Source: Azadirachta indica (taxonomy: Eukaryota > Streptophyta > Magnoliopsida > Sapindales > Meliaceae). From it: a DNA stretch of 64,000 nt. This document shows positions 16,745 through 39,888 of the stretch, piece after piece. A model generated the notes under the pieces. It was given only the letters and a program-made list of their open reading frames with translations, did no database searches and was not told the origin of the DNA. Where the stretch lies: NCBI GenBank assembly GCA_022749755.1, contig CM040444.1, positions 10,272,274-10,336,273 on the forward strand. The letters are read 5' to 3'. A program made the translations under genes and the position numbers. Each line of letters starts with the position of its first letter. Position 1 is the stretch's first letter.

Positions 16745-17660
16745 TCACCTAATATCTTGGGGTAAGTTTTTTGATAGTCACATGGGGACTTGATTTTGTT
16801 TGACCGCGAGGACGATTTGTCGGTACCACAAGAGTAAGTTTTTTGGTAGTCATAGGAGGTTTAATTTTGTTAAACTATGAGGGCAGTTTTTTCAATACCA
16901 TGATGGTGTTTTATTTTCTAGTAGCCCCAAGGGACTAAGTTTCCGTGAGCATTGTGTGTCAGTATCACGGTGGTACTTAATTTTTTAATGGTCTAAAGAA
17001 ACTTAGTTTTATTTATCGCAAGGGTGATGTGTCAACACCATGATGGTAATTTATTTTCTAATAGTCTAAGAGAACTTTATTTTTTTCATTTTATCGCGAG
17101 GGCAGTGTTTCAACACCATAGTGATACTTTATTTTTTGGTATTCCTAGAGGACTTTATTTTATTTACTATAAATGCAGTGTCTGCACCATGGTAGTACTT
17201 TATTTTCTGATAGTGCAAGGGGACCTAATTTTATTTACCACAAGAGTAGTGTGTCTATACTATGGTGATACTTTATTTTCTAGTAGTTTGAAGGGACTTT
17301 GTTTAATTTAAGGCAAGGTTGGTGTTTGTACCATGGTGATACTTTATTCTTCGGTAATGCGGGGGGACTTTATTTTATTTACCGCTAGGGCGGTGTCAAT
17401 ACCATGGTGGCACTTTGTTTTCTAGTAATCCGAGAGAGCCTAATTTTATTTACCTTGAGGGCGCGATGTATCAATACCATGGTGACACTTTATTTTCCAG
17501 TGGTTCAAGAGAACTTTATTTTATTTATCGCAGGGACAGTGTCGGTACCATGGTGATACTTTATTTTTTGGCAGTTTGAAAGGACCATTTTTATTTATTG
17601 CAAGGCCGGTTTGTCGATACCATATGGTACTTTATTTTGTAGTATTCCGAGCAAATTTTG
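16745..17660. repeat. Diverged tandem repeat, ~12 units of ~72 bp
   Basis: About twelve units of 67-78 bp lie head to tail. The consensus by eye is ACTTTATTTTATTTACCGCG, AGGGCAGTGTCAATACCATG, GTGATACTTTATTTTCTGGT, AGTCCGAGAGG. Each unit holds the phrase ACTTTATTTT twice, about 36 bp apart, suggesting a dimeric unit. Copies differ by roughly 15-30 percent, so the array is old. Open stretches across it are by-products of the repeat, not genes. Confidence 0.9.
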
Positions 17661-17972
17661 CATTTTGGCACTTAGTGGTGCATTACTTGGCTCATCTTCA
17701 CTATTTTTCTCTTAGAAATGGTAAGCAGATGAAAACTTATACAATAGCATCATAAATTCATTAAACATAAACAAATATGATTTATACTCATAGCAATTAT
17801 ATAATATATAAAAAAAAAGGGCTTAGAAGATTGTACATATGAAAGTGTAAATTGAGACTAATTTGGTTACTAATAAAAAAAAAAATTCACATCATAGTTT
17901 ATTATTTCTAATTAAATTATAAGAAAATTAAATATTATTTAAAATAATCGTGCATACTAAGTAGAAATTGGC

Positions 17973-19347
17973 TAATGAATGTTTAAAAGTGTAGGTTTAT
18001 CAAGAGAAATATTATAATTTACACTTAATAATGTCCTTCTATTCCCCAATAATGAAGCATATTCCTTTATATTGAATTGTAAAATATGAATTGGACTAAA
18101 TAGTTGGTTTTGCGCAGGTTTCGTATAATGAGCGTATCTTTCAATCCAAATTATCAATTGATACGATTCTTGAGGTAGACAAACATAAACTCATCATTTC
18201 ACAACTTTGTAAGCCAAAGGTTGGACCAGTTCAAGCAATTAATGGGATGAAATTGGGCTTCAACAGAACTCAAGCGCATCTTTGAACCAGCCCAACATGC
18301 TTCCGTATTTGGGCCGTATCTCCCTAAATATGTAACGAAAAATTACGTGGTTGGGTGATCTAGAAAGCTGAGAAAGGGATCTAAATTGTTTATGTAGGTT
18401 ACCAAAAAGAGCTATCATTCTAGAAGGGCGGTGGAAAAATGCGACTTAAACATCTCTGCCTATTTTCAACACAACTCATGGTCTAAAATAGAAATAAGAG
18501 CGAGATATAGACCATTAGAAAGATGAGTCACCCACCTACAACTTTGAAGAAGGATGCTTTATGAAATTCGGTGGTTTTCATGGTCAAAGATATGTTGGAA
18601 GTTGGTAAAGTGTGATTAATTGGAAATTGACCAAATTATGTTCACACATGTGGAATGTCTTTTGTTTTACCTATATAAAGGGAGACGTGGAAGTGAGGAG
18701 GGAGATCAGTTTTGTTTTCCATTTCTATTTTATTGTTGTAATTTGAACTTTAATTAAATGATGTATTTCTAATTTCGTAATTAGGGTTAAGGTGAACTTT
18801 TGATGATTTTATAGTTTTGTTCTTTGATCCTTTGCCTTGTTCTTCATTGTTAATCTTTTTATTGATTGAGTACTATATTTTGCAAGTGATTTTGAATTGT
18901 TAGAAACCTTGATTAATTGTTAACAAATGGTACATTGAATACTTGGATATTTTCTACATATCAAGAGCATGGTAACTTATAGTTTTTCACCATCAACTAA
19001 AAGGTAAGTCTTTTGATTTCTTTGTGCTTAAACGTTTTGTTTTCATTATCCAATTAAGATCAGTTCTTTTGATTCTTAATTGTGTTTTTCTTTAAAAAAA
19101 AGGGATCAAGAATAAGTTCTATACAAATCATTAAAATGGATCCCTAATGCCCTAATATATAATAATATAGAATTTAAATTTGACAATAAACAAATTCACT
19201 CTATTAGAATATTCGGATTTATAATATTTAGACCTTTGAACTTGTAAACTTAATATAACATATTCTCTGTGGACCGACACTCGGACTTCCGAACTTTATT
19301 ACTTAAGATAACTTATACTTGAGAGTTACAACCTTTAAGTTGTAGCA
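17973..19347 (+). repeat. 5' LTR of the Athila-type element
   Basis: 1,375 bp. It begins TAATGAATGTTT, where the 3' LTR has TGATGAATGTTT, so the terminal TG is mutated. It ends ...AAGTTGTAGCA. It lacks ~27 bp that the 3' LTR has after TTTATG. A TATA box (CTATATAAAGGG) lies at 18,672-18,679 and is conserved in both LTRs; it is the probable start signal for element RNA. Confidence 0.95.
18672..18679 (+). promoter_or_regulatory. TATA box in 5' LTR
   Basis: TATATAAA within TTACCTATATAAAGGGAGAC, about halfway through the LTR, the usual place for the U3/R boundary. The same sequence lies at 28,706-28,713 in the 3' LTR. Confidence 0.65.
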
Positions 19348-19353
19348 AGTTTT

Positions 19354-19371
19354 TGGCGCCGTTGCCGGGGA
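19354..19371 (+). other. Primer binding site, tRNA-Asp type
   Basis: TGGCGCCGTTGCCGGGGA begins six bases after the 5' LTR. This is the primer site typical of Athila-type plant gypsy elements, complementary to the tRNA-Asp 3' end. It appears unmutated. Confidence 0.85.
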
Positions 19372-19716: not shown

Positions 19717-21590
19717 TTGTGTTTTATTATTATTATTATTATTTTTATGCTTGGATGGTATCGTGATCCTCATTCTCATCGATTGGTGAAAGGTAATTCT
19801 GAAACCTCCTTTGGAAATTTGTTTGATTCATCTTCAAACTCACACACAACTAACACTATGGCTGAAAATGAAAGTATTCATGGAGAAAATGAAAATCATC
19901 ATGTTCGAACTATGCGTGAATATTTGCAACCTCCTCGAAATTCATTTCCTTCATGCTTTATTTTTCCGCTCAATGCAAATAACTTCAGATTTAAGCCCGG
20001 TATGATTCCTTTACTTCCTAATTTCCATGGCTTAGAGTCTGAGAGTCCTTATTTACATTTGAAAGAATTTGAGGAAGTATGTGCCACATTTATGGATCAA
20101 ACATGTAGTGAAAAAATAATTAAGCTAAAATTGTTTCCTTTTTCTTTAAAAGATAAAGCAAAAACATGGCTTAATTCATTAAGATTTAGATCTATAGGCA
20201 CATGACAAGAAATGCAAACCAAGTTTTTAAAGCAATTTTTTCCAATACATAAAACGAATGCTTTCAAGAGACAAATTCAAAATTTTTGTCAAAAAGGAAA
20301 TGAAACATATTTTCAATGTTTGGAAAGATTTAAAGACTTGTTGAATTCATGCCCACACCATGGTTTTGAAAAATGGCGTAGGATAAGTTTCTTTTATGAA
20401 GGGTTAACACCAGAGACAAAACAATTTGTTGAAACAATGTGTAATGGTGAATTTTTAGACAAAGACCCAGAAGAAGCTTTAGAGTATTTAGATCATTTAG
20501 CTGAGAACTCTCAATCCTGGCAAACCACTAGTTTCTCTAAAAATTCAATTAGATCTAATATGACTAGTTCTAATGAGGGTAAATATAATTTGAGTGGAGA
20601 AAATGATCTAAGTGCTAGAATTACAAATTTAACGAGAAAGATTGAAGCCATGGAATTAAGGAAAGTTAAAGAGGTCAAATCTGTGCATAATGATGAAATT
20701 TGTGAAATTTGTAAAGTCATGGGACATTCCACTCAAGATTGTCCAAATATTTCTATTTTTAAAGAAGTGTTGCATGACCAAGCAAATTCTATGAATTCCT
20801 TCAAAAAGCCTTTTTCCTCTAATTCTCCATATTCTGAAACATACAATCCTGGATGGAGAAATCACCCAAATTTTCGTTGGAGAAATGATAATCATGCCCA
20901 TCCACCACCTCAAAGACCTTCAAATTTTCCATCATACCATTCACCACATTTGAAAACTCTTGAGGAAACATTGCAAACATTCATGCAAGGGCAAACAAGC
21001 ATAAACAATCAAACATCACAAGCCATTGATGATATCAAGAATACACTTTCAACATTGACCTCAGCTTTGCGCAGTCAAGAGAAAGGTAAATTTCCTGCTC
21101 AACCACAATCAAATCCAGCGGGTCAATTTCATGTAAGTGATTCTAACTCAAATGGCACACAGCACGAGAATGCCAACTCCATCACTACTCTCCGAAGTGG
21201 TAAGGTCATTGATAAAACCATTTCTTTGAAAGAGATTGAACCTAAAGAACCATCAAAATTAGTGAGTGAGGAAAATAATGTTGAACCTAAGATGTATGAT
21301 GTTAAAAAATGCCCTATCCCTGCTCCTTTTCCTCAAAGATTGCAACCAATTCAAAAGTTGAACCAAAATTCTGAAATTTTTGAACTTTTTAAGCAAGTCA
21401 AAATTAACATTCCTTTGTTAGATGCAATTAAACAAGTTCTTTCTTATGCCAAATTTTTAAAAGATTTATGTACTGTTAAAAGGAAGCTTAATGTTCAAAA
21501 GAAAGCATTTTTAACTGAGAATGTTAATTCGATTATTCAACATAACACTCCACCAAAATATAAAGATCTTGATTGTCCCACCATTTCTTG
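19717..21590 (+). pseudogene. Gag of the Athila-type element (one nonsense codon)
   Basis: The Gag frame may start at 19,717 or at the later ATG at 19,858 (MAENESIHGEN), which fits the family better. It contains the retrotransposon gag domain (PYLHLKEFEEVCATF, LKDKAKTWLNSL, MQTKFLKQFFP, CLERFKDLLNSCPHHGFE) and one zinc knuckle, CEICKVMGHSTQDC (CX2CX4HX4C, 20,701-20,742). A TGA at 20,203-20,205 sits where family members have Trp (GTW-EMQ), consistent with TGG to TGA. The frame otherwise stays open to 21,612, but homology shifts to another frame near 21,590, where a base has been lost. Gag would form cytoplasmic particles; this copy yields only a truncated N-terminal piece. Confidence 0.9.
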
Positions 21591-23882
21591 TGTATTGGAA
21601 ACTTTAGGATAAACCATGCTTTACTTGATCTTGGTGCAAGTGTTAATTTGTTGCCATATTCAGTGTATGAGCAATTAGGTTTAAGTGAGCTTAAACCTAC
21701 TTCTACAACACTTCAACTTGCTGATCGTTCTGTGAAAATACCACGAGGAATACTTGAGGATGTGTTAGTCCAAGTAGATAAATTTTACTTTCCTGTAAAT
21801 TTTATTGTCTTAGACACACAACCTATTTCTAACTCAAGCACCCAAATTCCTGTCATATTAGAACGTTCATTTCTTGCTACATCTAATGCAATAATCAATT
21901 GTAGGAATGGAATTCTAAAATTAACCTTTGGAAACATGACATTGGAAATGAATGTGTTTAATATTTGCAAGCAACCTAGTGAAAATAATGACATGCATGA
22001 AGTTAGTTATATCGAGGAACTCGTTCATGACTACTTTAATGTTTCATCTTTTTCTGATCCCTTGGATGCTTATTTAAATGGTTGCAATGATTTCAATTTT
22101 GATGAAAATTTTGAAGTATCTCATATTTATTCTCTTTTAAAATCTTCTCAGGTTTTGGAAGTTAATGGATGGAGACCAAAATTTGAAGACTTACCTCAAC
22201 GAGCTGATAAACCGATGCCATCGAGTGTTCAACCACCAAAACTTGAATTGAAACCATTACCATCTGACCTCAAGTATGCTTTCTTGGGTGCTAATGAAAC
22301 TTTTCCGGTGATAATTTCTTCTAAACTCAGTACTCTTCAAGAATGTAAGTTGCTCAAAATTCTAAGATTGCATAAATATGCTTTAGGATGGACAATAGCT
22401 GACATAAAAGGAATTAGTCCTTTGATTTGCACACATAAGATATATTTGGAAGATAATGCCAAATCATCTAGACAAATGCAACGTAGGCTGAATCCTAATA
22501 TGAAAGAGGTAGTGAGAAATGAAGTTCTCAAGCTTTTAGATGTAGGAATCATTTATCCTATTTCTGATAGCACATAGGTAAGTCTTACACAATTTGTACC
22601 TAAGAAATCTGGAGTTACTGTAGTCAAAAATGAAAATAATGAATTAATTCCAACTAGAACAATTACTAGCTGGAGAATGTGCATTGACTATAGGAAACTC
22701 AATTCAATGACTAGGAAAGACTATTTCCCATTACCATTCATGGATCAAATGTTGGAAAGGGTAGCTGGACATGCATTTTATTGTTTCCTAGATGGGTATT
22801 TTGGGTATAACCAAATTGAAATTGCACCTGAAGACCAAGAAAAGACCACTTTCACTTGTCCATTTGGAACTTTTGCATATAGAAGGATGCCATTTGAATT
22901 GTATAATGCACCAACTACATTTCAAAGATGCATGCTTAGTATTTTTAGTGATATGGTTGAACGATTTCTTTAAATTTTCATGGATGATTTTTCTGTGTTT
23001 GGTGATTCATTTGATGATTGTTTATCTAACTTGGAAAAAGTTTTGATTAGGTGTGAAGAAAAGAATCTTGTGCTTAATTGGGAAAAATGTCATTTCATGG
23101 TCACAAATGGTATTGTGTTTGGTTACATTGTCTCATCAAAAGGAATTGAAGTAGATAAATCTAAAATTGAATTAATTGCCAATTTACCTATTCCTAAGTC
23201 TGTTAAAGATGTTAGATCATTTTTAGGACATGCTGGTTTTTATAGAAAATTTATCAAAGACTTTAATGTCATATCAAGACCATTGTGCAATCTCTTATTA
23301 AAAGATGCTCTCTTTGAGTGGACTGAGTCATGTCAAGAAGCTTTTGTTAAACTTAAAACTATGCTAACATCTGCTCCTATCATGCAGCCTCCAAATTGGA
23401 CTTTACCTTTTAAAATCATGTGCGATGCTAGCGATTATGCTGTTGGAGCTGTTTTAGGACAACGAAAGGATAAGAAACCCTATGTGATTTACTATGCTAG
23501 TAAAACCTTAAATAGTGCTCAAATGAATTATTCTACCACTGAAAAGGAATTACTTGCAATAGTATTTGCATTGGATAAATATTGATCTTCTCTTGTTGGC
23601 TCACCCATTGTGATTTTTAGTGATCATGCAGCATTAAAATATTTTCTTTCAAAAAAGGATGTTAAACCTAAATTGATTAGGTGGATTCTACTATTTCAAG
23701 AATTTGATCTCACAATTCAAGACAAAAAGGAAGTACAAAATGTGGTTGCTGATCACTTGTCAAGACTTATGTTTGAGGAATCGACTAAGACAACACCGAT
23801 TAATGACAATTTCCCTGATGAGCAACTTTTCAATGTTTCTATTTTACCTTGTTTGCTGATATTGTCAATTTTCTTGTTATAG
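21573..23882 (+). pseudogene. Protease, reverse transcriptase and RNase H of the Athila-type element
   Basis: The aspartic protease has the Athila-style active site LLDLGASVNLLP (about 21,617-21,655). RT begins after DVGIIYP, carries RMCIDYRKLNSMTRKD and the catalytic IFMDDFSVFG (about 22,975), and RNase H has IMCDASDYAVGAVLGQ and FSDHAALKYF. Lesions are TAG at 22,575-22,577 (family Trp), TAA at 22,971-22,973 (family Glu), TGA at 23,583-23,585 (family Arg) and a 1-bp loss near 23,853 that moves the frame before the integrase. YFGYNQI replaces the usual YSGYNQI. Apart from these breaks, motif residues are well kept, indicating recent inactivation. Confidence 0.9.
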
Positions 23883-23883
23883 G

Positions 23884-25144
23884 TCAAATGCCAAATCATT
23901 GGAATGCTCAAGATAAAAAGAAATTTTTAAGGGAGGTACGCAATTTCTTTTGAGATGATCCATATCTTTTCAAATATTGCCCTGACCAAATTATAAGGAG
24001 ATGTGTACCTAACAATGAAATTCAAAATATCATTTCTTTTTGTCATTCTGAAGCATGTGGTGGTCATTTTTCTTCAAAGAAAACTGCTGCGAAAATATTG
24101 CAATGTAGATTTTATTGGCCTACCTTATTTAAAGACACAAATATATTTTGTAAAACATGTGACCGTTGTCAAAAATTAGGTGAAATAACTCGTAGAAACA
24201 TGATGCCATTAAATCCTATTTTAGTCATTGAAATATTTGATTGTTGGGGTATTGATTTTATGGGTCATTTTCCATTTTCTTTTGGGTATCAATACATTTT
24301 AGTTGGAGTTGACTATATTTCTAAATGGGTAGAGGCAATTTCTTGCAAAAATAATGATCATAAAATTGTTTTGAAATTTTTGAAAGAAAACATTTTTTCA
24401 AGATTTGGAGTGCCTCGAGCCATAATAAGTGATGGAGGTTTACATTTTTGTAATAAAATTTTTGAGAATTTAATGAAAAAATATGGAATTACACATAAAG
24501 TGTCAACCCCTTATCACCCACAAACAAGTGGACAAGTTGAACTTGCCAATAGAGAAATAAAACATATTTTGGAAAAAACGGTAAAACCGAATCGTAAGGA
24601 TTGGTCTTTAAGACTAACCGATGTACTTTGGGCTTATCGAACTGCTTTTAAATCATCACTTGGCATGTCTCCTTATAGACTTGTTTTTGGAAAGGCTTGT
24701 CACCTACCGGTGGAATTAGAACATAAAGCTTTTTGGGCCATTAAAATGCTTAATTTTGACTTAGATAAAGCAGGATCATTGAGAAAACTCCAAATAGATG
24801 AACTCGAAGAAATTAGGAATGAAGCTTACGAGAATTCTAGAATTTACAAAAAGAAAATGAAGGTGTTTCATGATAAACATATCATTAGAAAATCATTTGA
24901 ACCTTCACAAAAAGTTCTTTTGTATGATTCAAGATTGCATCTATTTTCTGGCAAACTTCGCTCAAAATGGATAGGTCCTTTCATTGTTAAGAAGGTTTAC
25001 CTACATGACGCTGTTAAGATTGAAAACCCCAAAAATGGTAATGTTTTTAAAGTTAATGGACACCGTTTAAAACCATTCTTTGAGAATTTTCCAAGTGAGT
25101 TAGAGTCTATCACTTTGATTGAACCTGTTTACGATACTGGATGA
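23884..25144 (+). pseudogene. Integrase of the Athila-type element
   Basis: This follows from pol by frameshift. A TGA at 23,951-23,953 replaces the Trp before DDPYLFKYC. After it the frame is open to 25,144. The HHCC zinc-binding region is present ([11 protein letters not shown], then CKTCDRCQ). The catalytic core has Asp in WGIDFMGHF, Asp in AIISDGG and Glu in [13 protein letters not shown], the full D,D(35)E set. A C-terminal domain with [20 protein letters not shown] follows. The protein would insert element cDNA into the genome. It needs the Gag-Pol fusion to be made, and several upstream stops prevent this here. Confidence 0.9.
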
Positions 25145-25346: not shown

Positions 25347-25895
25347 ATGGATGTCATTCTTTCTAGATTGCAAACATATTTTCCTTCTTTTCCTAAAGAT
25401 GTTCTACGAAAAATGTACCAAGCTAGGTGTGCAATATTAAGAATGCTTATGCAAAAAGGTATTCCTGAAGATGTGCGATGGATAATTGAAGTAAAGGTAC
25501 GTTTAGCAGGTGAGTTTTCTGATTCATTTGTTTCACGCATGCCTGGTTTAGGTAAGAGCTCTTTTGCAAAGAAACGAAAAGCGAAAAGGTTACAAGTGTG
25601 TCACAATTGTGTACGTTCAACCTGTAACAAGCGATGTCGTTCTCTAGGCATGGTGTCTACTAATAGAGAAGATAAAATTAAATTCATCAAGGATAGACTG
25701 AGTAAGGAGTCTTTAGATAATATCTTATTGACTCTTGAGACGCATCCTAGTGGATATGTTCAACGTGAAATTCTCAATTTGTATACATTATTTCAAAAAG
25801 AACGTGATCGTTGTTGTCTTGGGAATCTGACTTTAAAAGACCCTGTTTGCCAATTTGTAAGAAAATTGGATGCGAAGCCAATCCTCGACCCATAG
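25347..25895 (+). CDS. Extra ORF with basic stretch and Cys cluster, unknown function
   Basis: This uninterrupted 182-residue frame lies 200 bp after the integrase stop. The in-frame ATG at 25,347 (MDVILSRLQTYFPSFP) is chosen because the upstream part of the open frame, from 25,119, is low-complexity Phe/Leu-rich and overlaps integrase. Residues 75-81 are KKRKAKR, a nuclear-signal-like basic run. Residues 85-97 are CHNCVRSTCNKRC, a CX2CX4CX3C cluster that could bind zinc. The rest is predicted helical with HPSGYVQREILNLYTLF. I recognise no named domain. It sits where Athila elements keep env-like or other extra frames, but it has no signal peptide or membrane segment in the chosen form. It might bind nucleic acid; that is inference. 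It shares the element's sense strand with the LOG frame 300 bp downstream. Confidence 0.7.
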   Translation: MDVILSRLQTYFPSFPKDVLRKMYQARCAILRMLMQKGIPEDVRWIIEVKVRLAGEFSDSFVSRMPGLGKSSFAKKRKAKRLQVCHNCVRSTCNKRCRSLGMVSTNREDKIKFIKDRLSKESLDNILLTLETHPSGYVQREILNLYTLFQKERDRCCLGNLTLKDPVCQFVRKLDAKPILDP

Positions 25896-26198
25896 AGGGC
25901 GTTTAAGCCGTTACTGGATGTAAAACCAGAGGAAGATGTGAGCCACAATCACAACTATCTATAAATATTTACTTTTAGCTGTCGTTGTTGAAATTTTTAT
26001 GTTTTAAATTCCTATATTAGCTGTTATCTTTGACATTTTTACATTTTTAAATTTTAACTTTTATGACAACAGCTGGCTTACATCTATTGGTTTCATTAAT
26101 GCATTCTCTTTAAGTTGTATAAATGCAGGACCTCACTTCTTTATTTTCATAAAAAATTTGAATTACTGACGAGGGTAAAAGACTGCAAAAAAAAAAAA

Positions 26199-26849
26199 AT
26201 GAAAGGAGCTTCTGCTCATCAAATTAAAACTATTTGTGTTTTTTGTGGGTCAAGTTCTGGGAAAGGTGAAGAGTTTGTAAAAGCAGCAGACAACCTGGGT
26301 CGAGTTTTAGCTGAGCGAAAATTTAACCTAGTGTATGGAGGAGGTAGCCTTGGGTTAATGAGGTGTGTGTCAACTGCCGCACATATAGGAGGAAGTGAAG
26401 TTATAGGTATCATACCAAAGGCTTTATCGGCAGGTAACATAACTGGCAAAACAATTAGAGAAGAACAAATGGTCTCAACAATGCATAAAAGAATTGCTAA
26501 AATGCTTGATTCTGCAGATGCTTTTATTGCCTTACTAGGTGGTTTTGGGACCTTAGAAGAAATTTTTCAAATTGCATCTTGGGCACAACTCACCGTTCAT
26601 CAAAAACCCATAGGATTGTTAAATGTTAATGGTTTTTTTAACAAGTTGTTGTCTTTTCTTGATCATGCTGTAAAACAGAATTTTATTTCACAGATGGCTC
26701 GCAAACTCCTCATTTCTGCTCCGACTACTAATGACTTGATTAATCAATTGCAGAACTTTGTCTATGAACCAGATCCAACAATGGCACGATTAGAATGGTC
26801 AAGTGAAAACAGTAAAAAGCGAAAGCTGGATTTGTCGCTTCATTTGTAA
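26199..26849 (+). CDS. LOG-like cytokinin riboside 5'-monophosphate phosphoribohydrolase, captured
   Basis: A 216-residue intronless frame, the usual LOG length. LOG enzymes release active cytokinin bases from cytokinin nucleotides in the cytosol. The start at 26,199 follows a run of 13 A; the frame is open from 26,115, but those 28 residues have no counterpart in the family. Visible motifs are TICVFCGSSSG (11-21), NLVYGGGSLGLM (43-54), VIGIIPKAL (68-76), MHKRIAKM (95-102, with Arg98), LGGFGTLEE (113-121, with Glu121) and KPIGLLNVNGF (136-146). The family motif is PGGxGTxxE: Pro is Leu here. In GGGS.GLMG the last Gly is Arg55. Both changes fit C-to-T or G-to-A decay. The C-terminus ends with the basic KKRKLDLSLHL. 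It lies inside the LTR element in sense orientation, so element transcripts would carry it. Identification is firm; activity of this copy is uncertain. Confidence 0.9.
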   Translation: MKGASAHQIKTICVFCGSSSGKGEEFVKAADNLGRVLAERKFNLVYGGGSLGLMRCVSTAAHIGGSEVIGIIPKALSAGNITGKTIREEQMVSTMHKRIAKMLDSADAFIALLGGFGTLEEIFQIASWAQLTVHQKPIGLLNVNGFFNKLLSFLDHAVKQNFISQMARKLLISAPTTNDLINQLQNFVYEPDPTMARLEWSSENSKKRKLDLSLHL

Positions 26850-26993: not shown

Positions 26994-27031
26994 ACATTGG
27001 GGACAATGTTGCAATCTGGTTGGGGGGAGTG
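26994..27031 (+). other. Internal polypurine-like motif after LOG
   Basis: The stretch GGGGACAATG...CTGGTTGGGGGGAGTGTAG resembles the G-rich block found after the last gene in Athila-type elements. Its CTGGTTGGGGGG core is repeated at the true polypurine tract at 27,966-27,979. It could be a second plus-strand priming site; this is not shown. Confidence 0.5.
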
Positions 27032-27965: not shown

Positions 27966-27979
27966 CTGGTTGGGGGGTG
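27966..27979 (+). other. Polypurine tract
   Basis: CTGGTTGGGGGGTG lies immediately before the 3' LTR start (TGATGAATG at 27,980), the position of the primer for plus-strand DNA synthesis. Confidence 0.75.
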
Positions 27980-29382
27980 TGATGAATGTTTAAAAGTGTA
28001 GGTTTATCAAGAGAAATATTATAATTTATACTTAATAATGTCCTTCTATTCCCCAATAATGAAGCATATTCCTTTATATTTAATTGTAAAACATGAATTG
28101 GATTAAATAGTTGGTTTTGCGCAGGTTTTGTATAATGAGTGTATCTTTCAATCCAAATTATCAATTAATACGATTCTTGGGCTAGACAAACATAAACTCA
28201 TCATTTCACAACTTTGTAAGCCAAAGGTTGGACCAGTTCGAGCAATTAATGGGACGAAATTGGGTTTCAACAGAACTCAAGCGCATCTTTGATCCAGCCC
28301 AACTTGCTTCCGTATTTGGGCCGTATCTCCCTAAATATGTAACGAAAAATTACGTGGTTGGGTGATCTAGAAAGCTGAGAAGGGGATCTAAATTATTTAT
28401 GTTTTGTACTTTCTCAAATTTCAACTGGTAGGTTATCAAAAAGAGCTATCATTCTAGAAGGGCGGTGGAAAAATATGACTTGAACATCTCTGCCTATTTT
28501 CAACACAACTCATGGTCTAAAATAGAAATAAGAGCGAGATATAGACCATTAGAAAGATGAGTCATCCACCTACAACTTTAAAGAAGGATGTTTTACGAAA
28601 TTAGGTGGTTTTCATGGTCAAAAATATGTTGGAAATTGGTAAAGCGTGATTAATTGGAAATTGACCAAATTATGTTCACACATGTGGAATGTCTTTTGTT
28701 TTACCTATATAAAGGGAGACGTGGAAGTGAGGAGGGAGATCAGTTTTGTTTTCCATTTCTATTTTATTGTTGTAATTTGAACTTTAATTAAATGATGTAT
28801 TTCTAATTTCGTAATTAGGGTTAAGGGTGAACTTTTGATGATTTTATAGTTTTGTTCTTTGATCCTTTGCCTTGTTCTTCATTGTTAATCTTTTTATTGA
28901 TTGAGTACTATATTTTGCAAGTGATTTTGAATTGTTAGAAACCTTGATTCATTGTTAACAAATGGTACATTGAATACTTGCATATTTTCTACATATCAAG
29001 AGCATGGCAACTTATAGTTTTTCACCATCAACTAAAAGGTAAGTCTTTTGATTTCTTTGTGCTTAAACGTTTTGTTTTCATTATCCAATTAAGATCAGTT
29101 CTTTTGATTCTTAATTGTGTTTTTCTTTAAAAAAAAGGGATCAAGAATAAGTTCTATACAAATCATTAAAATGGATCCCTAATGCCCTAATATATAATAA
29201 TATAGAATTTAAAATTGACAATAAGCAAATTCACTCTATTAGAATATTCGGATTTATAATATTTAGACCTTTGGACTTGTAGACTTAATATAACATATTC
29301 CCTGTGAACCGACACTCGGACTTCCGAACTTTATTATTTGAGACAATCTATACTTGAGAGTTACAACCTTTAAGTTGTAGCA
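27980..29382 (+). repeat. 3' LTR of the Athila-type element
   Basis: 1,403 bp. It begins TGATGAATG and ends TTGTAGCA, then TTGGC. It is 28 bp longer than the 5' LTR because of a ~27-bp block (TTTTGTACTTTCTC...) near 28,402 and one extra G. Most of the ~43 differences are transitions. Confidence 0.95.
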
Positions 29383-29387
29383 TTGGC

Positions 29388-32502: not shown

Positions 32503-32938
32503 TGTTGATACCAAAAAATTGTAATTCTTAATATCACTGAAAATTATGGATTTTTCTTGTAATAGTAAAAATCATGTCTTTTTTACACAGGAGCTATTAT
32601 ATATATATATATATATAACTTTCCTTTTTCTAGAAATATTAGGAATCTAGATAATCTTGGTATATATTTTACAAAATCCTAACTTGTCTAAAATCAAACT
32701 TCCCAAAAATGATTTTCCTTGTTCCATAAGGACCACTTCTGGTTGGACTTCCTTGTGACGCATCCAAGTAGATCTCTTCCGAGCTGACCTACTCGTGACT
32801 AAGGAGACTGACCAGGCATCAAGCTTACCACCCTAATGGATCGAGTTCATCTTCTCAGGGATCCTGATGGGCTGAACTCATCCTAATCAGCCTCAAGGAC
32901 TGGGTTATGGGCCTTTGATGAACCTATCTTCCCAAACA
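32503..32938 (-). repeat. 3' LTR of the Tat-type element
   Basis: 436 bp, TGTTGATACC...CCCAAACA. It differs from the right LTR mainly in the length of a (TA)n run near 32,597-32,618 and scattered substitutions. The neighbouring TGGGGGGTTT (minus strand, 32,941-32,950) is the polypurine tract. Confidence 0.9.
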
Positions 32939-34400: not shown

Positions 34401-35112
34401 TAGAGAAGTGTGAACTCGAGTGAAAAGAGCCATAAGTTTGATGATGATGAAGCAGAGTCAAACTCACAAGTAAACCCTCGCAGTAGTAAACATCTTTTGA
34501 CCCAATACCCTCCCTTTGATCTGACTAGGGAAAATAGGCCATTTAAGGCTGATAAATTCCTGTCCAGTATCACTAAGACTGACCTGGTGGCTTTCAAGAA
34601 AGTTTATCAAATTCCTAACTTTATTATCCTTAGGGTTCCAGAGGCCAACGAGTTTTCTAGCCATTTAAGAGGAGACAAAGTAGCCTTCAACGAGAAACTG
34701 TTTCTCCTTAAGGCTCAACTACTACTTCAACCATACTTTGCAACCTTGTTTCATGGCCTAAGAATTCCTGCTTACTAGCTAAATCTGAACGGGTGAAGAA
34801 CCATCACCAAGTTATACGTGATTTCGGCTATAGCCGGGCAGACCTCATCTACCATCGGTGAATTAAGTACTTATTCTTAGTTAAGAAGGGGTTCAAGAAA
34901 TGCTTCGGCTTCTACTATTTCCAAGTTCGCATCTAAGCTGATAAACTAGTTACAGGTAACCCCACCTGTAATAAGAACTAGAAGGATAGATGGTTTTTTG
35001 TGGATGGGGACTAAGGTCAATCTTCTTTAGCTGAAATGAATATGCACAACCTTATGCCTTATGCCTTCAAACCTATTGTTCCTAAGTATATCCCTTAGTG
35101 TAAGACGTAGGC
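34401..35112 (+). pseudogene. Antisense extra ORF of the Tat-type element (gypsy-type 'transposase 28'-like)
   Basis: The plus strand, opposite to gag-pol, has an open segment at 34,410-34,778 including YQIPNFIILRVPEANEFS, then after stops GFYYFQVRI and KDRWFFVDGD at about 34,910-35,020. The pattern 'I P..L.LR.P...E', then 'GW.YF', then 'SNKGWK.R.FFV.G' is that of the plant PF04195-type protein (putative gypsy-type transposon), a known extra product of Tat-group elements. Stops at several points make this copy a pseudogene. Its biochemical role is unknown. Confidence 0.65.
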
Positions 35113-39438: not shown

Positions 39439-39532
39439 TGTTGATACCAAAAAATCATAATTCTTGATATCACTAAAAATTATGGATTTCTCTTAGGATA
39501 GTAAAAAATCATGTCTCTTTTATGCAGGAGCT

Positions 39533-39563
<31 letters not shown>

Positions 39564-39888
39564 ACAACTTTCCTTCTTCTAGAAGTAATAGGAATCTTGA
39601 TAATCTTGGTAAGTATCTTACAAAATCCTAACTTGCCTTAAACCGAACTTCCTAAAATTGATTTTTCTTGTTCCGTCAAGACCACTTCTAATCAGATTCC
39701 CTTGTGATGCGTCTGAGCAGAAACCCTTCCGAAACGACCTGGTTGTGACTAAGGAGATTGATCAAGCATGAAGCTTACCACCCTAATAGGCCGAACTCAT
39801 CTTCTCAAGGACCTTGATGGAGGGAAATCATTCTAATTAGCCTCAAGGACTAGGCTATGGGCCTTTAATGAGCGTATCTTCCCAAACA
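39439..39888 (-). repeat. 5' LTR of the Tat-type element
   Basis: 450 bp, matches the left LTR along its whole length. The (TA)n run near 39,536-39,563 is longer than in the partner. It ends CCCAAACA, followed by CCATA. Confidence 0.9.

What the first reader, a model, noticed from the sequence alone, without database searches (positions are those of the whole stretch)
26115..26849. A full-length LONELY GUY (cytokinin-activating) gene inside an LTR retrotransposon
Seen: a 216-residue intronless LOG homologue sits on the sense strand between integrase and polypurine tract, within LTRs bounded by a perfect 5-bp target duplication. Known: LOG enzymes free active cytokinins and act in meristems, and the plant LOG genes I know contain several introns. 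Inference: the element captured a spliced LOG transcript. An element that raises cytokinin in its host cell could promote division of the cells that transmit it, which would be a hormone-manipulating selfish element. I know of no established description of such a system, but cannot search.
Basis: partly seen in the sequence, partly recalled or inferred. Interest (0 to 1): 0.93.

Follow-up and report, generated by a model that had tools for sequence, protein, structure and literature searches.

The report
Repurposed cytokinin-enzyme gene in plant retrotransposons
A family of plant jumping genes carries its own altered copy of a plant hormone-activating enzyme, with a tail that looks able to grab a master gene repressor, next to a gene resembling a plant-virus defence blocker, so these elements may carry tools to manipulate their host.

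Summary
A 216-codon open LOG-family frame (26199-26849) lies between integrase and 3' LTR of an LTR retrotransposon with a 5-bp target duplication. It is no one-off: the source genome has at least 152 matches, and the 50 best all share the same sequence on both sides of LOG. What I found beyond that: (1) LOGs of this clade kept the catalytic Arg and Glu but lost two residues proposed for the adenine/prenyl pocket (Lys to Ile/Met/Leu; Glu to Gln/His), so plain cytokinin activation is doubtful; (2) they share a C-terminal basic stretch plus LxLxL, the EAR/TOPLESS-binding consensus: 102 of 121 nearest relatives against 0 of 120 ordinary LOGs; (3) a second gene, next to LOG, belongs to the Pfam families of carlavirus-type cysteine-rich proteins, and gene models in Rhamnella and Citrus join the two. 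I read this as a two-gene host-directed cassette in which LOG was rebuilt, probably into a corepressor-recruiting effector. Function is inference. Selection tests on copies within this genome gave no clear signal; the argument for constraint is conservation between species.

The parts
17968..17972 (.). Target site duplication, left copy (TTGGC)
17973..19347 (+). 5' LTR
19354..19371 (+). Primer binding site; matches the 3' end of plant tRNA-Asp as I recall that tRNA (not tested here)
   Evidence: sequence
19747..21612 (+). gag, interrupted by an in-frame stop at 20203-20205 and continuing as the 20206-21612 frame
   Evidence: (PF03732 in the 20206 frame)
21573..25144 (+). pol: protease, reverse transcriptase, RNase H, integrase; broken in this copy by stops and at least one change of frame
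   Evidence: PF13650, PF00078, PF17919, PF17921, PF00665
25347..25895 (+). CRP: 182-aa open frame of the viral nucleic-acid-binding / carlavirus cysteine-rich families, with a basic run followed by Cx2C..C..C
26127..26128 (+). Possible splice acceptor (TGCAG) upstream of LOG; weak: no transcript evidence, and AG is kept in only 44 of 50 copies, the G being the most variable base between 26108 and 26135
26199..26849 (+). LOG-derived gene, 216 aa, open
26817..26846 (+). C-terminal tail codons 207-216: KRKLDLSLHL, basic stretch plus LxLxL (EAR-type)
27968..27979 (+). Polypurine tract just before the 3' LTR
27980..29382 (+). 3' LTR
29383..29387 (.). Target site duplication, right copy (TTGGC)

Best explanation
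Shown: an Athila-like retrotransposon lineage has two accessory genes fixed between integrase and 3' LTR: a virus-type cysteine-rich zinc-finger protein (CRP) and a LOG-derived enzyme. In this clade the LOG keeps the fold, the PGGxGTxxE motif and the catalytic Arg/Glu. It has replaced two residues of the proposed adenine/prenyl pocket and ends in a basic stretch plus LxLxL. Inferred: both proteins are host-directed effectors. The CRP would act like its viral relatives (silencing suppression, nuclear zinc-finger activity). The LOG derivative would act in the nucleus, its exposed EAR-type tail recruiting or sequestering TOPLESS-type corepressors, with a phosphoribohydrolase activity whose base preference has shifted away from ordinary cytokinin nucleotides. 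The benefit to the element would be a host cell state, or relaxed silencing, that favours transposition.
For: Multicopy and fixed: 152 matches (393 candidates, 150 scored). Of the 50 best places 49 have the CRP upstream, 47 the 3' LTR and 44 an integrase end in reach. The CRP has 150 matches in the genome (326 candidates, 150 scored). Tail: strict LxLxL in the last 14 residues in 102 of 121 query-like LOGs (window included) against 0 of 120 ordinary LOGs; 51 of 57 own-genome copies that reach it; AlphaFold gives 203-216 a pLDDT under 50. Pocket: within the subclade Lys99 1 of 115 and Glu124 0 of 115; in its 6 sister rows and in 92 of 92 ordinary LOGs both are present. Catalytic Arg98 108 of 115, Glu121 110 of 115. 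The subclade stands with the trait columns removed (FastTree support 0.984). Element linkage elsewhere: gene models join LOG to gag (Melia P0005, Xanthoceras P0002), CRP to integrase (Rhamnella P0220), CRP to LOG (Rhamnella P0225, Citrus P0237). CRP family: window protein above both Pfam cut-offs; 32 and 30 of 40 members scanned, window included, match at E 0.001. Precedents: a C-terminal EAR motif in a pathogen effector binds TPL (PMC7446885, abstract); viral CRPs are silencing suppressors, one also a transcription factor causing hyperplasia (PMC12172455, passages).
Against: No expression, binding or enzyme data. LxLxL is short, and one section heading of PMC7446885 reads that an EAR motif is not sufficient to mediate interaction with TPL. 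Within this genome dN/dS of LOG (0.72) is inside the range of pseudo-frames of non-coding sequence (0.63-0.78 and 0.40-0.76 for two stretches) and higher than LOG's own wrong frames (0.37, 0.65); CRP (0.87) is likewise higher than its wrong frames (0.48, 0.74). Depletion of shared transversions in LOG alone is not significant (p 0.095; 0.42 with a looser threshold). Only 5 of 240 relatives show a joined element protein; for the rest, element location outside this genome is inferred. The clade was drawn from the 120 best of 3776 hits, ordinary LOGs from the best 120 of 7999 scored; LOG subfamilies in between were not examined. The CgLOG residue match is by constant offset in the motifs, not by an alignment to CgLOG. 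The CRP fold could not be predicted (pLDDT 55).
Confidence: 0.45

Rival explanations
1. Plain cytokinin-activating LOG: the element raises cytokinin in its host cell and so promotes division of the cells that transmit it.
For: LOG fold and family; catalytic Arg98 and Glu121 kept in 108 and 110 of 115, Trp128 of the prenyl site in 113 of 115.
Against: Lys99 and Glu124, which correspond to prenyl-site residues said to be identical in AtLOG3, OsLOG, CpLOG and CgLOG, are lost in 114 and 115 of 115. Alanine substitutions of the AMP-binding and catalytic residues in CgLOG almost abolished activity, S19A excepted. The window copy also has Leu for Pro113 in PGGxGTxxE, where 51 of 62 copies have Pro.
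Confidence: 0.2
2. A phosphoribohydrolase with a new nucleotide substrate that serves the element directly (for example altering nucleotide pools or removing modified nucleotides), the tail being only a localisation or packaging signal.
For: Catalytic residues conserved while two base-pocket residues differ throughout the subclade from its sister rows and ordinary LOGs; the fold also matches PpnN, titled a nucleosidase.
Against: Does not explain why the last residues keep the LxLxL consensus.
Confidence: 0.2
3. Virion or integration-complex accessory protein: the tail binds Gag or import factors and the LOG domain is a dimeric scaffold.
For: Position of env/accessory genes, 3' of integrase; the basic tail could act in nuclear import (inference).
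Against: Catalytic residues would not need to be conserved. Not tested here.
Confidence: 0.07
4. Passenger: a neutral captured host gene amplified by hitch-hiking.
For: Within the young burst in this genome the substitutions look neutral; only 17 of 62 copies examined are full-length without stop or gap. In the same copies integrase did show a depletion of shared transversions (p 0.003) while LOG alone did not.
Against: Length, core motifs and tail are conserved among relatives at about 59-82% identity from several plant orders; decay after insertion is expected for any element gene.
Confidence: 0.07

Closest known systems
LOG-like extra ORFs in plant Ty3/gypsy elements (Steinbauerova et al. 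2011, abstract recalled: two Athila-like elements similar to LOGL4; PMC9289625, section read: YgdH domain in Citrus sinensis, C. clementina, Populus trichocarpa)
   Same: LOG-family domain inside Ty3/gypsy LTR retrotransposons; Citrus and Populus relatives were also met here
   Different: What I saw of that literature gives presence only; the tail, the pocket changes, the adjoining CRP and the single-clade tree are not in the passages I read
Plant LOG cytokinin-activating enzymes (AtLOG3, AtLOG8)
   Same: Fold, PGGxGTxxE, catalytic Arg and Glu, Trp128
   Different: Lys99 and Glu124 replaced, no intron, C-terminal basic + LxLxL tail
Carlavirus/allexivirus-type cysteine-rich proteins (PF01623, PF05515)
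   Same: Above both Pfam cut-offs; has a basic run and a zinc finger, the two motifs named for viral CRPs (PMC12172455 passages)
   Different: Encoded in an LTR retrotransposon; about 180 aa; not aligned here with any viral protein directly
Pathogen effectors with a C-terminal EAR motif (HaRxL21, PMC7446885, abstract)
   Same: C-terminal EAR-type motif
   Different: Different carrier protein, encoded by a genome-resident element; binding not shown here
Gypsy-encoded AlkB m6A demethylase in Phalaenopsis elements (PMC9289625, abstract)
   Same: A captured enzyme family fixed in a gypsy lineage
   Different: Different enzyme; theirs was assayed, this one was not

Membership tests
LOG (cytokinin riboside 5'-monophosphate phosphoribohydrolase) | PF03641 domain and LOG fold | tested here: met
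LOG (cytokinin riboside 5'-monophosphate phosphoribohydrolase) | PGGxGTxxE motif and catalytic Arg/Glu | tested here: met
   Arg98 108 of 115, Glu121 110 of 115 in the subclade; this copy reads LGG instead of PGG
LOG (cytokinin riboside 5'-monophosphate phosphoribohydrolase) | Adenine/prenyl pocket residues Lys100 and Glu125 of CgLOG | tested here: not met
   1 of 115 and 0 of 115 (residues from PMC4979012 passages). So: LOG homologue, not filed as a cytokinin-activating LOG
LOG (cytokinin riboside 5'-monophosphate phosphoribohydrolase) | Release of cytokinin base from the nucleotide | not testable with these tools
   needs an enzyme assay
Athila lineage of Ty3/gypsy | gypsy order protease-RT-RNase H-integrase, 5-bp TSD, extra ORF 3' of integrase | tested here: met
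Athila lineage of Ty3/gypsy | No second RNase H (aRH), which marks the Tat clade | tested here: inconclusive
   no such Pfam hit in the nine frames scanned, but shorter frames and 23585-23954 were not scanned; definition from PMC6317226 passages
Athila lineage of Ty3/gypsy | Athila ORF-1 domain PF03078 | tested here: not met
   no hit in the nine frames scanned; found in only 16% of Athila elements
Athila lineage of Ty3/gypsy | RT/RH/INT phylogeny | not tested
   hence written Athila-like
Viral CRP / nucleic-acid-binding protein (PF05515, PF01623) | Pfam gathering scores | tested here: met
   24.1 against 23 and 22.3 against 20.9; 32 and 30 of 40 members match at E 0.001. The longer stop-to-stop frame scored 22.8 for PF05515, just under its cut-off; of six relatives scanned singly, P0225 had no CRP match at E 0.01
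Viral CRP / nucleic-acid-binding protein (PF05515, PF01623) | RNA silencing suppression | not testable with these tools
   needs a bench assay
EAR-motif TOPLESS recruiters | LxLxL consensus in an exposed position | tested here: met
   (tail pLDDT under 50)
EAR-motif TOPLESS recruiters | TPL/TPR binding | not testable with these tools
   needs yeast two-hybrid or pull-down

The most novel reading that the evidence does not exclude
A retrotransposon lineage spread through rosids and at least one asterid carries a conserved two-gene host-manipulation cassette: a plant-virus-type silencing-suppressor-like zinc-finger protein, and a LOG enzyme that after capture lost its cytokinin pocket and gained a nuclear, TOPLESS-recruiting tail on one branch of its tree.
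Probability: 0.33. Interest if true: 0.92.

Novelty: new variant of a known kind. Interest (0 to 1): 0.74.

Why it matters
Extra ORFs of plant retrotransposons mostly have no known role. Here are two with testable predictions: a virus-type silencing-suppressor-like protein beside a rebuilt host enzyme carrying a corepressor-binding motif. If confirmed, plant retrotransposons would use virus- and pathogen-style effectors against their host. A practical point does not depend on the mechanism: gene models of this clade that databases name 'cytokinin riboside 5'-monophosphate phosphoribohydrolase' (Melia P0005, Parasponia P0088, Populus P0086 and P0097) should not be read as ordinary cytokinin genes without a test.

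Tried and rejected
Later insertion of LOG into one copy: rejected, flanks are shared by 50 of 50 copies. Retroposition poly-A: rejected, the A-run is upstream of the ATG. dN/dS on the young copies as evidence of purifying selection: rejected; LOG 0.72 and CRP 0.87 do not fall below pseudo-frames of non-coding sequence or their own wrong frames, and shared variants include stops, so recurrent transitions dominate (45 of 50 copies after dropping near-duplicates). Shared against single transversions: LOG p 0.095, CRP p 0.24, LOG+CRP p 0.037, integrase p 0.003 at three or more copies; at two or more only integrase (p 0.013) (39-45 rows per region, badly aligned rows dropped). Integrase dN/dS is unreliable because of poor alignment. 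The decline of dN/dS over dS bins is a binning artefact and is not used. A splice acceptor before LOG: position plausible, but its G varies (44 of 50). Viral contig scans with the LOG and CRP alignments gave 12 and 15 pattern matches, none confirmed. CRP fold prediction was too weak to search with. The Melia model that joins gag start to LOG residue 23 is used only as evidence that both lie in one locus; as a protein it would lack the first strand. Species: probably a Meliaceae, perhaps neem, from the Melia hit, the 281-Mb genome and recalled chromosome number; one search did not settle it. Papers: PMC9289625 (abstract, passages, section 12), PMC7264820, PMC4979012, PMC12172455, PMC11593424, PMC6317226 (passages), PMC7446885 (abstract and headings); Steinbauerova 2011 was not held and is cited from recall and through PMC9289625. 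My statement that tail, pocket and CRP are not in print rests on the listings (open-access library only; 20 of 347, 15 of 19, 15 of 118 and 20 of 350 papers were listed).

Full report
What is there. The frame at 26199-26849 encodes 216 residues from an ATG, matches PF03641 and is closest to AtLOG3 among solved structures by sequence and by fold. It lies after integrase and before the 3' LTR of an element with LTRs 17973-19347 and 27980-29382 and TTGGC target duplications. The LTRs differ by K2P 0.032. In this copy gag and pol are broken by stops and at least one change of frame, while LOG and the frame before it are open.

It is a family trait. The source genome (281 Mb, 21 contigs) has 152 matches to the LOG; 393 candidates arose and 150 were scored, so this is a lower bound. 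I examined the 50 best places with 1.5-kb flanks (L001-L030, L061-L080, the window's own copy included). The stretch before LOG and the non-coding stretch after it were found in 50 of 50, the CRP frame in 49, the start of the 3' LTR in 47, and an integrase end within reach in 44. LOG is therefore part of the element. Of 62 copies, including 12 more diverged ones that I chose partly because they were open or far apart, 17 are full-length with no stop or gap.

A second gene. The frame 25347-25895 scores above the curated cut-offs of PF05515 (24.1 against 23) and PF01623 (22.3 against 20.9), the nucleic-acid-binding or cysteine-rich proteins of carlaviruses; of 40 members scanned (the window and 39 of the 120 relatives listed, picked by me) 32 and 30 match, best E about 1e-8. 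It has a basic run followed by a Cx2C..C..C finger; a nuclear localisation signal and a zinc finger are the two motifs named for viral CRPs (PMC12172455 passages). It has 358 relatives in the protein collection; named ones among the 120 listed come from Populus, Xanthoceras, Acer, Rhamnella and Citrus. Gene models join CRP with integrase (Rhamnella P0220) and CRP with LOG (Rhamnella P0225, Citrus P0237). The same paper summarises viral CRPs as silencing suppressors, and CVB p12 as also a transcription factor that induces hyperplasia. Whether the retrotransposon CRP does either is unknown. Its fold could not be predicted with confidence.

The LOG has been rebuilt. I aligned the window LOG and its 120 best relatives (of 3776) with ordinary LOGs found with AtLOG3+AtLOG8 (best 120 of 7999 scored; the 92 under 230 aa in the tree, all 120 in the tail count). 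The query-like LOGs form one clade (FastTree support 1.0). Within it, 115 form a subclade that stands at 0.984 when the tail and four pocket-region columns are left out. Six rows fall outside this subclade: four Xanthoceras models and two unnamed records (P0098, P0118).

Pocket. PMC4979012 (passages) gives CgLOG Arg99 and Glu122 as proposed catalytic residues, Met96, Lys100 and Glu121 as the adenine site, and Met96, His97, Lys100, Glu125 and Trp129 as the proposed prenyl site, identical in AtLOG3, OsLOG and CpLOG. Window numbers are one lower; I matched them by the spacing of the motifs, not by an alignment to CgLOG. In the 115: Arg98 108, Glu121 110, Trp128 113, Met95 91, His96 69, but Lys99 only 1 (47 Ile, 47 Met, 19 Leu, 1 Thr) and Glu124 0 (85 Gln, 24 His, 6 other). 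In the six sister rows Lys and Glu are present in 6 of 6, and in ordinary LOGs in 92 of 92. So the catalytic pair is kept while the base pocket changed, most simply on one branch. In this genome 60 of 62 copies have Ile99 and 60 of 62 Gln124. The window copy has, in addition, Leu in place of Pro113, where 51 of 62 have Pro; that looks like damage to this copy.

Tail. The last residues are a basic stretch and LxLxL, usually LxLxLxL. The strict pattern occurs in the last 14 residues of 102 of 121 query-like LOGs and 0 of 120 ordinary ones. Of the 19 without it six are the sister rows and 13 are truncated or altered members of the subclade. In this genome 51 of 57 copies that reach the end keep it. 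The host LOG exon on C19 and the degraded host-like copies on C7 lack it. AlphaFold models the LOG core well and gives 203-216 a pLDDT under 50, as expected of an exposed linear motif. LxLxL is the EAR consensus (abstracts in the listing), and a C-terminal EAR motif of a downy mildew effector binds TOPLESS (PMC7446885 abstract). That paper also has a section headed 'An EAR motif is not sufficient to mediate interaction with TPL', so binding must be tested. Calling the basic stretch a nuclear signal is my reading.

Spread. Named species among the 120 query-like LOGs are Melia, Xanthoceras, Diplodiscus, Reevesia, Populus, Parasponia and Paulownia: rosids and one asterid. Reevesia alone fills 45 of the 120 rows, with gene names from 17 chromosome labels, counted by eye; I take that as a mobile-element pattern. 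Direct proof of element location outside this genome is limited to five joined gene models among 240 relatives, from Melia, Xanthoceras, Rhamnella (two) and Citrus.

Selection. Within this genome I could not show it. LOG dN/dS 0.72 lies within the range of non-coding pseudo-frames (0.40-0.78) and above LOG's own wrong frames (0.37, 0.65). Inherited transversions are fewer in LOG than in non-coding parts but not significantly (p 0.095), whereas integrase shows the depletion (p 0.003). The case for constraint rests on conservation between species. Among 41 of the 120 relatives, picked by me for the alignment (whole, not joined models), at 59-82% identity, 35 columns are invariant, among them Arg98, Glu120, Glu121 and Trp128. 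In all 120 Arg98 is kept in 112 and Glu121 in 115. Relatives from databases are mostly predicted genes, which favours open frames.

Reading. I think the LOG became an effector that keeps a nucleotide-hydrolysing core but acts through its tail on TOPLESS-type corepressors, beside a CRP that may counter silencing. The anatomy, the linkage, the residue changes and the tail are shown; subcellular site, partners, substrate and benefit are inferred.

Prior art. LOG-type domains in plant Ty3/gypsy elements are in print (PMC9289625, section read, citing Steinbauerova et al. 2011). In the open-access library a search for the names and numbers of the two CRP families found two papers, by title on other subjects; none of the 15 papers listed of 118 is by title about a LOG or a retrotransposon EAR tail; and a 2024 paper on LOG evolution in plants holds neither 'EAR motif' nor 'retrotransposon' in its main text (PMC11593424, term counts). 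Subscription papers were not searched.

On re-reading my calls I corrected the range of the non-coding controls, the count and choice of rows behind the invariant columns, and the named examples of database annotation, and I added the poor conservation of the possible splice acceptor. Of the odds only that of the passenger rival was raised, from 0.06 to 0.07, for the wrong-frame result.

Noticed in passing
L031 and L032 (G000 C7:771342-771911 and C7:5951041-5951610, minus strand): Two near-identical intronless LOG-like frames, 68% identical to AtLOG3, with a degraded motif (PGGYGIPEE) and no EAR tail; probably a host LOG retrocopy duplicated 5 Mb apart.
   Followed up: partly
window 32503-32938 and 39439-39888: Direct repeats 82-88% identical, about 6.9 kb apart: probably the LTRs of an older, separate element, with an unidentified 124-aa frame at 34404-34778 inside.
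   Followed up: no
window 16886-17599: Array of ten copies of a roughly 72-bp unit (61-80% identity to the reference copy) that ends about 370 bp before the element's 5' LTR.
   Followed up: no
window 26997-27029: A second polypurine-like stretch (TTGGGGACAATG..GGTTGGGGGGAG) about 0.9 kb before the true one; possibly an internal priming site.
   Followed up: no
Xanthoceras proteins P0002, P0004, P0041: Lys-type, tail-less LOG pieces occur twice in each gene model, in P0002 separated by an Athila-like gag fragment; they may represent the stage of capture before the pocket and tail changed.
   Followed up: partly
window 25896-26198: The 300-bp stretch between CRP and LOG is the least variable part of the region among copies (median pairwise difference 0.040; CRP 0.043, LOG 0.051) although it is non-coding; a translation or processing signal is possible.
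   Followed up: partly
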